Below are positions 47,152-51,762 of a stretch of DNA of 64,000 bases, piece by piece; the stretch's first letter is position 1; each line of letters begins with the position of its first letter. This DNA is from Tautonia marina (GTDB taxonomy: Bacteria > Planctomycetota > Planctomycetia > Isosphaerales > Isosphaeraceae). A program made the position numbers and the translations under genes. The stretch covers positions 245,674 through 309,673 of the forward strand of contig NZ_WEZF01000006.1 of NCBI RefSeq assembly GCF_009177065.1, written 5' to 3'. The notes under the pieces are model-generated. The model saw only the letters and a program-made list of their open reading frames with translations, was not told the origin of the DNA and made no database searches.

Positions 47152-47238
47152 GGAGGGGTGCCTGAGTGGTTGAAAGGGCCGGTCTCGAAAACCGGTGTAC
47201 CGGCAACGGTACCGTGGGTTCGAATCCCACCTCCTCCG
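47152..47238 (+). tRNA. tRNA-Ser(CGA)
   Basis: An 87-nt cloverleaf. The acceptor arms GGAGGGG / CTCCTCC pair with one G-U; the anticodon loop CTCGAAA in the stem CCGGT/ACCGG gives anticodon CGA; the long variable arm (GTACCG-GCAA-CGGTAC) is typical of serine tRNA; the T-arm is GTGGGTTCGAATCCCAC. No CCA is encoded. A perfect hairpin follows. Confidence 0.95.
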
Positions 47239-47268
47239 CTTGTACGTCGTTGAAAGCCTGGTCTTCAT

Positions 47269-47301: not shown

Positions 47302-47510
47302 GTTTCCGGGACGGTGGCAGGACCGGCCCGGATTATGCCTTCCTTGTCGCAGACCGTCGCATGTCGGCGGATCGGTAGGCGTATGGGAAGGCATATGCAT
47401 GCGCCGCGATCCGCCTCATCGGTCCACTCTACCCAGAATCCCGATCGGTGAGCCTCCACCTGGTATGATGGATTTGTACCGGAAACGGTGGTATCGATGA
47501 GGATCCTGGA

Positions 47511-48425
47511 ATGGACGGGGATGCTGAGCACTGGCTCCGGGTCTTAGGGCGGCTCAACGTGTACAGGGCCCGAGGCGGACCGGCACCCCACAAGCCGCTC
47601 CTGCTCCTGGTCCTACTGGAGCTGGCCGAGAAGGGGGAGCCACCGGCCAGGGTCCTGCCGTTGACGCCGGAACTGGCCTTCCGCTTCTGCTCCTACTGGG
47701 GCATCGTCGCCCATCGCAGGACCCAGCGGCCCGACGTGCGACTCCCGTTCTTCCACCTCGGCAGCGATGGCTGCTGGGACGCCTTGTGTGAGGATGGCGG
47801 GCCTGCGGACACTCCGCGAACGGCACGCTTCGCCTCGTTCGCCCCGACCTTCGAGGCCGCCATCCGCGACCCGGAATTCCGACGGGCGGCACGTCGGTTC
47901 CTGATCCGCACCTACTTCACGCCCCCGGAGCAAGAGGTCCTCGGGATTCTGGTCGGCGATCCGGAGCCGACCGATGGGGAGGATGGGGCATCGACCGAGG
48001 TGGCTCGAGAGTCGGATTCAAATCTGGCGAGGGGGAGTGGGCGCTCGGCCCGATTCCGACTCGATGTGGTCGCGGCCTACAGCTACACATGTGCCCTGAC
48101 GGGCCGCCGCCTGACGACGGTCACGGCCGGGAGCCTGGTCGACGCGGCCCACATCCGCCAGTTCGCCCGCTCGGGGAGCGACGAGATCGGCAACGGCCTG
48201 GCCCTGAGCAAGGACGCGCACTGGGCGTTCGACAGCGGCCTCTGGTCGCTGACCGACGACTGCCGGGTGATCGTCGCCGTGGGTTGCTTCGTCGAGGAGT
48301 GCCCGGACGGTCGCCCGCTCGGCGAGTATCACGGCCAGCAGATCCGGCTACCAGCAGAGCGGACGCTGTGGCCGAATCCCGTTAATCTCGCATGGCATCG
48401 GCGACACAAGCTTCAAAGTGATTGA
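47511..48425 (+). CDS. SBD-HNH endonuclease, probably phosphorothioate-DNA dependent
   Basis: A 304-residue protein in two parts. Residues about 1-150 match the sulfur-binding-domain (SBD) pattern: WLRVLGRLNVYRARG, then APHKPLLLLVLLEL, then LPFFHLGSDGCWDAL. Residues about 180-300 form an HNH nuclease with YSYTCALTGRRL, AGSLVDAAHIRQFARSG and NGLALSKDAHWAFDSGLWSL (His214, Asn228, His237). Proteins with this layout, such as the SprMcrA/EcoWI type, cut DNA that carries phosphorothioate sulfur. The gene is followed at once by a dndD remnant with a 4-nt overlap. GAGG 8 nt before the ATG supports the start. The specificity is family inference. Confidence 0.85.
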   Translation: MDGDAEHWLRVLGRLNVYRARGGPAPHKPLLLLVLLELAEKGEPPARVLPLTPELAFRFCSYWGIVAHRRTQRPDVRLPFFHLGSDGCWDALCEDGGPADTPRTARFASFAPTFEAAIRDPEFRRAARRFLIRTYFTPPEQEVLGILVGDPEPTDGEDGASTEVARESDSNLARGSGRSARFRLDVVAAYSYTCALTGRRLTTVTAGSLVDAAHIRQFARSGSDEIGNGLALSKDAHWAFDSGLWSLTDDCRVIVAVGCFVEECPDGRPLGEYHGQQIRLPAERTLWPNPVNLAWHRRHKLQSD

Positions 48426-49036
48426 ACGAGCTTGAGTTCGTAAATGAACAGTGTTGTCAAGTTCATGAAGGGTGTTCCCACGACGTCGCGAAGCTGAACG
48501 AGGAGGGCCGTCGGCTCGACGAGGCCATCGCGGTCCGGCGGTCAGAGCTCCAGGAGTGCGAGGCCCGGCGGGACCGGGCCCTGCAGGGCGACCTGGACAC
48601 TGAGTTCGAGTGGGAGGACTACGCCCGCATGGTCGGGCTCGCCGGGCGGACGAGGGCGACGATGCAGGCGTTCCTCCGCCGGGCGACCGAGCGAAAGATC
48701 GACCGCCTGTCGGGCCTGATCACCGAGTCCTTCCGGTTCCTGCTCCGCAAGACCACGCTGGTCGAGCGCATCCACATCGACCCGTCGGACTTCGCCATCA
48801 CGCTCTTCGACAAGGCCGGCCACGAGCAGTCCAAGCAGCGGCTCTCGGAGGGCGAGAAGCAGATCTTCGCCATCGCCGTGCTCTGGGGACTGGCCCGGGC
48901 CGCCACGAGGCCCTTGCCGGCGGTCATCGACACGCCGATGGCCCGGCTCGACGCCGCGCACCGCCGCAACCTGATCGAGCGTTACTTCCCCAACTGTCAC
49001 CGATCGCGCGAAACGGGTTCTCCCGGAATGGCATGA
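48422..49036 (+). pseudogene. dndD: dndD remnant (DNA phosphorothioation ATPase), truncated at both ends
   Basis: An open frame of 204 residues that matches the C-terminal third of DndD, the SMC-like ATPase of the Dnd DNA sulfur-modification system. The recognisable region is ITESFRFLLRKTTLVERIHI followed by RLSEGEKQIFAIAVLWGL (the ABC signature), then AVIDTPMARLDAAHRRNLIE (Walker B/D-loop). The N-terminal Walker A part, about 400 residues, is absent, so the gene cannot be functional. At the 3' end the frame runs into the left inverted repeat of the insertion sequence after YFPN, losing the last about 60 residues. The apparent start is a TTG overlapping the nuclease stop. Confidence 0.85.
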
Positions 49037-49049
49037 AGTTAAGCCGGAA
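48994..49049 (+). repeat. Left terminal inverted repeat of the IS
   Basis: Begins CTGTCACCGATCGCGC and matches the reverse complement of 50486-50541 with three mismatches at positions 17, 21 and 22. Confidence 0.9.
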
Positions 49050-50388
49050 GTCGTTGCTCCAGCTGGCGTTGTCGCAACACCTTTCTCGGCTGGATCATGT
49101 AGGGATACTTCTTCGCGCGCCTCTTCTTGCATCTCGGTTCCACCCGCTCCGGCCGACTCGGGTTGACGATCAGCTTGGACAGCGCCGAGCCCGGCGGCGA
49201 CGAAAGCCAGCGCAACGCGTCCACGAAGCTGACCCGGTTCACCGCGACACCTTGTCGCCGACTGGCCTCGAGCATGACCAGACGGACCAGGTTGTATACG
49301 ATCGCGAACGTCGCCAGCTCCTTGAGGACGCCCGACTCCGTCTTGCAATGCAACACATCCATGCCGAGTGTTGTTTTCAAGTGACCGATATCGGTCTCGA
49401 CCGCCCACCGAGCGAGGTAGAGTTCGGCCAGCTCCTCGAGCGGATACATGTCGGCATCCAGCAGCGTGGTCACCAGGGTCACCGAGCTGACCCGGAAGCC
49501 GAGCCGACTGACCTTATACCGACACTCGCGGATCGTCAGGGTCTCGGGCAGCGCGTCGTGCTCCTCGGCCGTCATCCACGCCGACCGTACATAGGGCTTG
49601 TACCACGCGACGACCTGGTCCTCCGGGCCCAGGGCGCGGACCCACTGCGAGCGTGCCTTGCCGGTGAGCTTCCCCGTGTTCCAGCGTGGCGGCCGCGTTC
49701 GATCCGGGGTGAAGTCGACGACCCGCCGCTGGCTCATGCGGAAGACGCCGTGAAGCCCGCGGTCCATGAGCAGGGCCAGGTGGGCGAACGTGCCAAACGC
49801 GCGGTCCCCGACCAGGACGTCGCCGGTGCGGAGCTCGGGATGCAGCAGGGCGACGCGCGACATCTCGTGCGATCGTAGAGGGGCGGTGATGAATTGCTGG
49901 AGCAGTCCGGAGCCGGCGTGGAACAGGGCCAGGACGCGGGCAACCGGGAAGCCGCAGCCGACGGCCTGGTTGGTCGGCTGGCCGAAGGCGCGCTGCAGAT
50001 CCGGGGTGTCGGGCATGCTGATGCCGGTCCCGTCGACGAGCCAGGTGCGATGCCCGTGCCAGAGCCCGGCGGCGTCGGTCAAAGGCTGGCATACCTCGAC
50101 GATGCGTCGGAGCAGGGCCTGGAGGATCGCCAGGGGGAGTCGCGAGCGCGCCTGACAATACCCCGAGGCCGTGAAGTCGAGCCCGGTGAGTCGCGGCAGG
50201 TGGGCGCAGGCGGTGTTGCGGTGGAGGATCTGGAGGAGAAACAGATGGATGGTCGTGACCGGGTCGAGGACGCGCTCACGCCAGCGACATCCCCGGGACT
50301 GGCAGAGGTCGTGCAGGGCGAGCGGCTCGAGCCGGTCGGCAAGGTCGTCGCGAATCTGCCGCAAGGCCGAGACGAGCGATGGGGTCAT
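49039..50388 (-). CDS. IS4-family transposase
   Basis: A 449-residue DDE transposase from the ATG at 50388, which has GGGAG 9 nt upstream; an in-frame ATG at 50445 is possible. The catalytic residues are visible: first Asp in TWLVDGTGISM, second Asp in VLVGDRAFGTFA, and Glu in RWAVETDIGHLKTTLG, which contains the YREK-like context of IS4 members. The C-terminus is basic (RCKKRRAKKYPYMIQPRKV). The gene appears intact, so the element may still be mobile. Confidence 0.93.
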   Translation of the reverse strand: MTPSLVSALRQIRDDLADRLEPLALHDLCQSRGCRWRERVLDPVTTIHLFLLQILHRNTACAHLPRLTGLDFTASGYCQARSRLPLAILQALLRRIVEVCQPLTDAAGLWHGHRTWLVDGTGISMPDTPDLQRAFGQPTNQAVGCGFPVARVLALFHAGSGLLQQFITAPLRSHEMSRVALLHPELRTGDVLVGDRAFGTFAHLALLMDRGLHGVFRMSQRRVVDFTPDRTRPPRWNTGKLTGKARSQWVRALGPEDQVVAWYKPYVRSAWMTAEEHDALPETLTIRECRYKVSRLGFRVSSVTLVTTLLDADMYPLEELAELYLARWAVETDIGHLKTTLGMDVLHCKTESGVLKELATFAIVYNLVRLVMLEASRRQGVAVNRVSFVDALRWLSSPPGSALSKLIVNPSRPERVEPRCKKRRAKKYPYMIQPRKVLRQRQLEQRLPA

Positions 50389-50463
50389 GGTGAAGGGCTC
50401 CCGCCTGAGGTGTCCAGGCGAGGCCATCTTGCGCATGGCGAGCAAGGGCCGACAACGGATTCG

Positions 50464-51762
50464 CTACTTGAAGCGAGGTATAGAGTTCCGGCTTAACTTC
50501 ATGCCATTCCGGGAGAACCAATTTGGCGCGATCGGTGACAGTCTCGTGGGGAAACGCCGGCCGTTGAGGGTCGCGCCGATGAAGGTCGGACGCACGAGGT
50601 AGTGGTAGCTGACGATCAGGATCGGCACGGAGACGGCGAGGACGATGGCCATCTTCACCAGCGCCGGCAGCGACAAGGGCGCCAGCACGCCCGGCAGCCA
50701 GATCATCAACGGGAGATGGGCCAAGTAGAGCCAGTAAGACGCATCGGTCAGGTAGCGGAGCCGGGGCATGGGATGGTCGAAGTAGCGCAGCACCAGGCCC
50801 GTGAAGCCGAAGAAGAACAGCCAGACCATCAGCGCGCCCGAGCTCGCCGTGGCAATCAGGGCGACCGGGTCTCTCTCGGGGAGCGATCCCATCAAGCTTG
50901 TGACGGCGATCAGGTTGACCGGACAGATGAGCAGACCCAGGGACACGTGGAGCCAGGCGCGATTGCCGAACCTCGGCAAGAGGTCGCGCTGTGCGTAGAG
51001 CAACCATCCGAATCCGAAGAACAGGAAGTAGCCGATCAGAGCCTTGGGGGCGGGCAAGAAACGGGACGACGTCTCGAACGTGCCGGCCCTCATGGTCAGC
51101 AGCAGGAGCGTCGTCGGCACGGCCAGGATGAGCGCCCGCCAGGGGGAGGAGACGATCCTTCTCACGGTGGCGTCGGCCCGATTCCGGGGCCCGTCGCCCA
51201 GCCGGCGACCCAGCATGTCCAGGATCGCCACAAACGTATAAAAAATGATCAGGAAGTAGAGGAACCAAAGGTGCATCGTCGATCCATTCACATACGGCCC
51301 AGTCGGTCCGAACTGGGCGCGGACCTCGGGCGGGAGTTCGAAACCGCCGGCCTTCCTCGCGAATCGGAACCCGTAGACGAGCAGCGGATTGAGGATGATC
51401 CAGCCGATGACGAACGGGATCAGGATCCGCCGGACGCGATTCCTCAGCAGGTCGCCCAGGCCACGACGGTCACGGACGAGGGCCGCGAAGAATCCCGCCA
51501 GGACGAAGAAGATGGGCATCCGGAACGTGTGAATGAAAAACACGAGGATGTCGCAGACTGGGCTGGTACTCGGATCCTGATAGGGCCAGGCCGCACCGAG
51601 AGACACCGTGGTATACGATACGGCGGCGTGGATCACCAGGCCCAGCGACATCATCGAGGCCCGGAGGCAATCGAGGGCGTGGTAGCGGACGTGGTGGGTC
51701 GCCCCCTCCGGGGCGTGATCTCCGGGGCTCTGGCTCTGGGCCGGGGCCTCGTGGATGCTCAT
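50464..51762 (-). CDS. Acyltransferase family 3 membrane protein, 3' end replaced by IS sequence
   Basis: A 432-residue integral membrane protein with about ten spans. The N-terminal acyltransferase box is RYHALDCLRASMMSLGLVIH with a catalytic-type His, and the chain ends in the typical YHYLVRPTFIGATLNGRRFP. OpgC/MdoC-like and O-acetyltransferase proteins belong here; they acylate periplasmic glucans or surface polysaccharides. The last about 26 residues are read from the right inverted repeat of the insertion sequence, so the native C-terminus is lost, though the core fold is complete. The start has AAGG upstream. Confidence 0.85.
   Translation of the reverse strand: MSIHEAPAQSQSPGDHAPEGATHHVRYHALDCLRASMMSLGLVIHAAVSYTTVSLGAAWPYQDPSTSPVCDILVFFIHTFRMPIFFVLAGFFAALVRDRRGLGDLLRNRVRRILIPFVIGWIILNPLLVYGFRFARKAGGFELPPEVRAQFGPTGPYVNGSTMHLWFLYFLIIFYTFVAILDMLGRRLGDGPRNRADATVRRIVSSPWRALILAVPTTLLLLTMRAGTFETSSRFLPAPKALIGYFLFFGFGWLLYAQRDLLPRFGNRAWLHVSLGLLICPVNLIAVTSLMGSLPERDPVALIATASSGALMVWLFFFGFTGLVLRYFDHPMPRLRYLTDASYWLYLAHLPLMIWLPGVLAPLSLPALVKMAIVLAVSVPILIVSYHYLVRPTFIGATLNGRRFPTRLSPIAPNWFSRNGMKLSRNSIPRFK
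50486..50541 (-). repeat. Right terminal inverted repeat of the IS
   Basis: Reverse complement of the left repeat with three mismatches; it ends GGTGACAG at 50541. Confidence 0.9.

What the first reader, a model, noticed from the sequence alone, without database searches (positions are those of the whole stretch)
47511..49036. Phosphorothioate-dependent type restriction nuclease next to a broken dndD
The 304-residue protein has an SBD-like N-terminus and a complete HNH domain, the layout of enzymes that cut phosphorothioated DNA. Directly after it, overlapping its stop, is a dndD fragment missing its Walker A part and its C-terminus. A nuclease that attacks sulfur-modified DNA beside a dead sulfur-modification gene suggests either a decayed Dnd locus replaced by anti-Dnd restriction, or a hybrid locus in which the nuclease was once part of the modification system. 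Both conflict with simple self-tolerance.
Basis: partly seen in the sequence, partly recalled or inferred. Interest (0 to 1): 0.75.

Follow-up and report, generated by a model that had tools for sequence, protein, structure and literature searches.

The report
Surviving nuclease of dead Dnd operon
An intact gene for an enzyme predicted to cut sulfur-tagged DNA sits next to a broken piece of the machinery that makes such tags; it is likely the last survivor of a dismantled bacterial defence operon and would now attack only foreign sulfur-tagged DNA.

Summary

Relatives explain the pairing. Of 397 Planctomycetia genomes, 9 of 13 with this nuclease subfamily also carry dndD, against 2 of 42 with only weaker hits. 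One relative reads nuclease-dndB-dndC-dndD on one strand; another has an intact nuclease beside a full dnd cluster. The window is best read as such an operon after an internal deletion plus insertion-sequence damage (inferred).

With Dnd modification gone there is no self-tolerance conflict here; the nuclease most likely works alone as a type IV enzyme against incoming phosphorothioate DNA (inferred, untested). The paradox lies in relatives that keep both parts. Main counter-evidence: Tautonia rosea has the same nuclease at the same tRNA-Ser, decayed, with no dndD or dndE found.

The parts
47152..47239 (+). tRNA-Ser (anticodon CGA), left border shared with the relative G002
   Evidence: ARAGORN; collinear with G002
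47511..48425 (+). SBD-HNH nuclease gene, 304 aa, open reading frame
47511..47966 (+). sulfur-binding domain, residues 1-152; H27, K28 and P79 correspond by sequence motif to the sulfur-contacting residues of ScoMcrA
   Evidence: fold match, profile match, invariance in 55 of 55 aligned rows, residues named in PMC6224610 (passages)
48033..48407 (+). HNH nuclease domain, residues 175-299
   Evidence: Pfam HNH_2, TagI and VcaM4I matches, H214 and N228 in 55 of 55 rows, H237 in 54 of 55
48426..48484 (.). AT-rich stretch between the nuclease and recognisable dndD; place of the inferred deletion junction
   Evidence: 45.8% GC; G002 similarity ends at 48430; DndD homology starts near 48485
48485..48992 (+). 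dndD remnant: signature and Walker B part only, no Walker A half, no C-terminal end (mechanical ORF 48422-49036)
   Evidence: TIGR03185 437-603/650, PADLOC DndD E 7.8e-59, alignment
48993..50542 (.). IS4-family insertion sequence that cuts dndD; inverted arms 48993-49052 and 50483-50542
   Evidence: inverted repeat 60 nt, 93%; no target duplication found; one full copy in the assembly
49039..50445 (-). IS4-family transposase
   Evidence: NF033592, 179 bits, cut-off 115
50464..51762 (-). acyltransferase gene whose 3' end runs into the insertion sequence; right flank of the rearrangement
   Evidence: Pfam Acyl_transf_3; alignment to G002 and G003 relatives ends at the element

Best explanation
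This locus holds an intact SBD-HNH nuclease gene followed by a dndD fragment truncated at both ends, and is likely what remains of a Dnd phosphorothioate operon after an inferred internal deletion and an insertion-sequence hit, leaving a nuclease predicted to act alone on incoming phosphorothioate DNA. Shown: the two domains, the truncation at both ends, the insertion sequence, no dndB, dndC or dndE found by search, and the gene order nuclease-dndB-dndC-dndD in a relative. Inferred: that one deletion fused the end of the nuclease to the last third of dndD; that host DNA carries no Dnd-made phosphorothioate; that the SBD grips a phosphorothioate and the HNH domain cuts nearby, as in ScoMcrA and EcoWI; and that the gene is expressed.
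For: SBD and HNH by profile and fold, key residues kept. Host lacks the modification genes: dndD fragment only, no dndC, no dndB, no dndE while 5 of 7 genomes in the same search rang. Same order and strand as in G281 (nuclease, dndB, dndC, dndD). Linkage of the subfamily to dnd: 9 of 13 genomes against 16 of the other 384, and 2 of 42 with only weaker hits; 16 of 42 loci from named genomes have a Dnd gene in the stretch held. The window copy looks maintained: of 46 residue differences from G002, 29 lie on the G002 branch, 6 on the window's, 11 unresolved.
Against: G002 (T. rosea) has the nuclease at the same place with no dndD and no dndE, so the operon stage is not seen within the genus. The nuclease moves on its own: dS 0.146 against 0.88-1.26 for five neighbouring genes. 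The nuclease is only 46% identical to that of G115, whose DndD is the closest of those compared (64%), so the two genes may have different histories. No sigma-70-like promoter was found upstream (weak evidence). Activity, expression and host DNA state are untested; Ssp and BREX-4 systems were not searched.
Confidence: 0.62

Rival explanations
1. Chance neighbours at a variable site: a mobile stand-alone SBD-HNH gene beside tRNA-Ser, and a scrap of dndD that landed next to it through transposition or another rearrangement. The two never formed an operon in this lineage.
For: G002 has the nuclease at this tRNA without dndD or dndE; the nuclease's dS is far below that of its neighbours; an AT-rich stretch separates the parts; an insertion sequence adjoins; neither species' downstream sequence is found in the other beyond short low-identity matches.
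Against: Same strand and order as in G281; strong linkage of this subfamily to dnd; a damaged dndD also follows the nuclease in G128.
Confidence: 0.22
2. A decaying or silent relic: the nuclease gene is still open but not expressed or not active, on the way to the state seen in G002 and G001.
For: G002 has an in-frame stop and changes at conserved SBD and HNH positions; G001 holds two pieces with stops about 1.3 kb apart; no promoter-like site was found.
Against: Only 6 of 35 polarised changes lie on the window's branch (p 1e-4); the conserved SBD and HNH residues are kept.
Confidence: 0.1
3. A protected-self enzyme in the manner of DndI: it cuts DNA that lacks phosphorothioate, and the mark once shielded the host.
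For: Relatives sit beside complete dnd clusters with an intact nuclease, which simple phosphorothioate cutting does not explain.
Against: DndI harms cells without the mark (PMC11662687, passages), yet this gene is open and looks maintained where no Dnd set was found; the domains are SBD and HNH_2, not DUF262 and DUF1524.
Confidence: 0.05

Closest known systems
EcoWI-type SBD-HNH phosphorothioate-dependent restriction enzymes (PMC7461809, passages; NCBIfam NF045808)
   Same: SBD followed by HNH in about 300 residues, no SRA domain.
   Different: Scores 102 bits against the NF045808 cut-off of 180; the subfamily is linked to dnd in 9 of 13 genomes, while the paper reports under 3.6% for its set.
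ScoMcrA (SBD-SRA-HNH; PMC6224610, passages)
   Different: No SRA domain; the lid tyrosine is leucine.
wHTH(SBD)-SAD(SRA)-HNH nucleases of Dnd loci (PMC10853773, passages)
   Same: SBD-HNH nuclease encoded with Dnd modification genes; the paper proposes it as a restriction component.
   Different: That paper's type carries an SRA domain and tends to lie downstream of the modification genes; here there is no SRA, and in G281 the nuclease is the first gene.
DndI (DUF262-DUF1524; PMC11662687, passages)
   Same: HNH nuclease coupled to phosphorothioate modification genes.
   Different: Other domains and other logic: DndI is harmful without the mark; this gene stays open where no Dnd modification set was found.

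Membership tests
SBD-HNH nucleases (broad sense) | N-terminal sulfur-binding domain | tested here: met
SBD-HNH nucleases (broad sense) | sulfur-cavity residues (His, Arg/Lys, Pro) | tested here: met
   H27, K28, P79, matched by sequence motif and not by superposition; 55 of 55 rows; residues from PMC6224610 passages
SBD-HNH nucleases (broad sense) | C-terminal HNH domain with catalytic motif | tested here: met
SBD-HNH nucleases (broad sense) | cuts DNA depending on phosphorothioate | not testable with these tools
   needs an assay
NF045808 (phosphorothioated DNA-binding restriction endonuclease) | score over the curated cut-off of 180 bits | tested here: not met
   102 bits, E 2.9e-29; the other copy in this genome scores 350
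ScoMcrA type (SBD-SRA-HNH) | SRA domain between SBD and HNH | tested here: not met
   only about 22 residues (153-174) lie between the two domains in the model; no Pfam SRA hit
Working Dnd modification system | DndC, DndD and DndE present and whole | tested here: not met
   no dndC, dndD fragment only, no dndE
DndI / SspE | DUF262 and DUF1524 domains | tested here: not met
   Pfam lists HNH_2 only at E<=1
Ssp or BREX-4 phosphorothioate systems in this host | sspBCD or brxP genes in the genome | not tested

The most novel reading that the evidence does not exclude
This SRA-free SBD-HNH subfamily is a built-in effector of Dnd operons that reads the host's own sulfur marks: held in check by a neighbouring DndB-family protein (such a gene lies within 1.2 kb of the nuclease in 6 of 11 strong-match genomes outside the genus), it turns on tagged self-DNA when infection upsets the operon, so the mark is a self-destruct tag. 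Once the modification genes are lost, as in the window, the same protein becomes a type IV enzyme harmless to its host, which would explain why it outlives its operon.
Probability: 0.12. Interest if true: 0.75.

Novelty: new variant of a known kind. Interest (0 to 1): 0.45.

Why it matters
The published neighbourhood analysis of SBD-HNH enzymes found them rarely near dnd genes, as expected of enzymes that cut phosphorothioate DNA. A subfamily that is usually found with dnd, yet keeps open reading frames in genomes where no dnd set is found, appears to be tolerated in both states. That makes a sharp test possible: does it cut, ignore or sense its own operon's mark? Tautonia supplies the orphan state and G289 the complete state. 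It also suggests a route by which type IV enzymes may arise: the restriction arm of a modification operon that has lost its modification arm.

Tried and rejected
Rejected: that the dndD piece is a working gene (no Walker A half, no C-terminal end, cut by the insertion sequence). Rejected: that an intact dnd cluster elsewhere tags host DNA (the assembly is a draft, 97.76% complete). A first DndE search rang in none of the 14 control genomes and showed nothing; a search with a DndE protein in seven genomes replaced it (five rang, G000 and G002 did not). A tRNA-integrated island with att repeats: the tRNA-Ser 3' end occurs once in the window. A plain insertion of the IS4-family element: no target duplication of 4-12 bases found. 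Inconclusive: whether T. rosea lost dnd or never had it here (searches show only short low-identity matches downstream). The promoter and terminator scan found nothing. A paper search for the Hahella SBD returned nothing.

Limits of the counts. The E<1e-85 line for 'strong' was drawn; four genomes with partial matches (G001, G162, G169, G365) were set aside, none with dndD. Several of the 42 weaker hits cover the HNH part only. Searches scored 5 and 2 candidates per genome, and one search scored 7998 candidates and listed 120 of 1623. In the tree L007 and L017 were left out as the same contigs as L115 and L124, L041, L042 and L044-L047 as fragments; 10 of 46 rows had no label; labels mix 'dndD anywhere in the genome' (Planctomycetia rows) with 'Dnd gene in the stretch held' (others). 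The labels are no more clustered than shuffled ones (125 of 500 shuffles as low), so the tree supports frequent change of linkage, not its direction. Statements on the literature rest on searches and on passages; figures and supplements were not seen.

Full report
What is there. The window lies in contig C6 of a 7.07 Mb draft genome (97.76% complete). Its genus is most likely Tautonia (Planctomycetota): the same-genus genome G002 has the nuclease on a contig of the same length (635,111 bases) as that of the Tautonia rosea protein P0006. Rightward from tRNA-Ser(CGA) 47152-47239 come an open 304-codon gene (47511-48425), about 60 bp of AT-rich sequence, a dndD remnant (48485-48992), an IS4-family element (48993-50542) and an acyltransferase gene on the other strand whose end runs into the element.

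The dndD remnant. It matches positions 437-603 of the 650-position DndD profile: signature and Walker B are there, the Walker A half and the end are not. Of the seven DndD sequences compared, that of G115 (same family code, f1) is closest: 64% over 171 residues. The 3' end is cut at the left arm of the insertion sequence; no target duplication flanks the element, so it came with a rearrangement or a flank was lost later.

The rest of the genome. Searches found this dndD piece only, no dndC, no dndB and no dndE (five of seven genomes rang in that search, G000 and G002 did not). A second SBD-HNH enzyme lies at G000:C10:82847-83671, canonical by NF045808 (350 bits, cut-off 180). Two predicted phosphorothioate-dependent nucleases and no Dnd set fit a host without Dnd-made phosphorothioate. 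Ssp and BREX-4 genes were not searched.

Relatives. In 397 Planctomycetia genomes I took the 13 with a strong match to the family profile (E<1e-85, a line drawn after seeing the table). Nine carry dndD at E<=1e-40, against 16 of the other 384 (Fisher 2e-9; without the window's genus 8 of 11 against 16 of 382, 8e-9); of 42 genomes with only weaker hits, 2 do. Four genomes with partial matches were set aside, none with dndD. Gene maps: G281 reads nuclease, dndB, dndC, dndD on one strand (the contig ends in dndD). G289 has the nuclease, then on the other strand a dndB paralogue and a DndA/SspA-type cysteine desulfurase, then dndB, dndC, dndD, dndE. G115 has nuclease, dndB (opposite strand), dndC, dndD, dndE. 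G348 has dndE-dndD-dndC opposite dndB and nuclease, with a canonical SBD-HNH gene (376 bits) after it. G185 has the nuclease with a cysteine desulfurase and dndB on one contig and dndB-E on another. G368 has dndB beside the nuclease and dndD on another contig. G128 has the nuclease followed by a dndD with an internal gap (residues 1-206, then 456-581) and dndD pieces on other contigs. G093 has dndB-E 3-8 kb before a nuclease without the N-terminal SBD motif. G142 and G112 have the nuclease and no dndD, as has G311 (68% complete). A DndB-family gene lies within 1.2 kb of the nuclease in 6 of the 11 strong-match genomes outside the genus.

Of 42 loci from named genomes, 16 have a Dnd gene in the stretch held and 11 have dndC directly upstream on the same strand; many contigs are short. 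In a tree of 46 rows, branches with strong support force at least five changes of linkage, but the labels are no more clustered than shuffled ones and the tree does not give the direction. Among Gallionellaceae, L024 has dndC before the nuclease and L033 the nuclease alone, between alike flanking proteins.

The Tautonia locus. Window and G002 are collinear from 39005, where the comparison began, to 48430, and part 5 bp after the nuclease stop. The nuclease is far more alike (dS 0.146) than five nearby genes (dS 0.88-1.26), so it was exchanged or acquired after the species split, at the same spot. The G002 copy has an in-frame stop and changes at conserved SBD and HNH positions; G001 has two pieces with stops; G003 gave no match. 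Of 46 residue differences between window and G002 copies, 29 are on the G002 branch, 6 on the window's and 11 unresolved (p 1e-4 for 29 against 6). The window's copy looks maintained, that of G002 does not.

Mechanism. Most likely an operon like that of G281 lost dndB, dndC and the first two thirds of dndD in one deletion (inferred from order and strand), and the insertion sequence removed the end of dndD. With no Dnd modification, a phosphorothioate-reading nuclease has no Dnd-made self target and would work as a type IV enzyme: the SBD holds the mark and the HNH domain cuts nearby (inferred from ScoMcrA, PMC6224610, and EcoWI, PMC7461809; passages). An enzyme that cuts unmarked DNA, as DndI does, harms cells without the mark (PMC11662687, passages); an open, apparently maintained gene in a host without a Dnd set speaks against that logic, unless it is silent. 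The main weakness: G002 shows the nuclease here with no dndD or dndE found, so the dndD piece could be a later, unrelated arrival.

Known and new. SBD-HNH enzymes are known; PMC7461809 (passages) puts under 3.6% of them near dnd. PMC10853773 (passages) reports SBD(wHTH)+SRA+HNH proteins in Dnd loci of 698 taxa. In the searches and passages I saw no description of an SRA-free SBD-HNH subfamily that is usually linked to dnd (figures and supplements not seen). The locus itself is a remnant; the interest lies in the subfamily and in the contrast between genomes with and without the modification genes.

Noticed in passing
L012, L015, L020, L024, L039 (also L019, L034, L035 at short contig ends): Pairs of dndC directly followed by the SBD-HNH gene on the same strand, with no DndD found by tblastn against two reference DndDs in the stretch held: possibly a two-gene DndC plus SBD-HNH module.
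   Followed up: partly
L022:2436-6973 (alike in L026, L032; damaged in L031): Order dndC, SBD-HNH, a 304-aa protein matching only the C-terminal half of DndD, then a DndE/HerA-like fusion (DndH C-terminal and DndE profile hits), the ORFs overlapping end to end. L026 and L032 lack the DndD half; L031 has an interrupted nuclease and DndD and DndE/HerA pieces.
   Followed up: partly
L053:1474-2355 (-), that is G000:C10: A second, canonical SBD-HNH gene in the window's genome (NF045808, 350 bits), beside a 388-aa ORF of unknown role.
   Followed up: partly
L120:11213-12235 (+), G128: A dndD after the nuclease with residues 1-206 joined in one frame to 456-581 (340-aa ORF), lacking the coiled coil: another damaged dndD beside this nuclease.
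   Followed up: partly
L116:12785-13798, L119:2786-3763, L120:6785-7687: Next to the subfamily nuclease in G348, G185 and G128 lies a second SBD-HNH-like gene; confirmed by NF045808 only in G348 (376 bits), by BLAST alone in the other two.
   Followed up: no
window 47440-48430 against G002: Nucleotide identity to G002 rises from about 75-80% to about 90% where the nuclease begins (dS 0.146 against about 1), a sign of recent exchange of this one gene between Tautonia species.
   Followed up: partly
window 48993-50542: The IS4-family element has one full copy in the assembly and unlike flanks without target duplication, a sign of rearrangement.
   Followed up: partly
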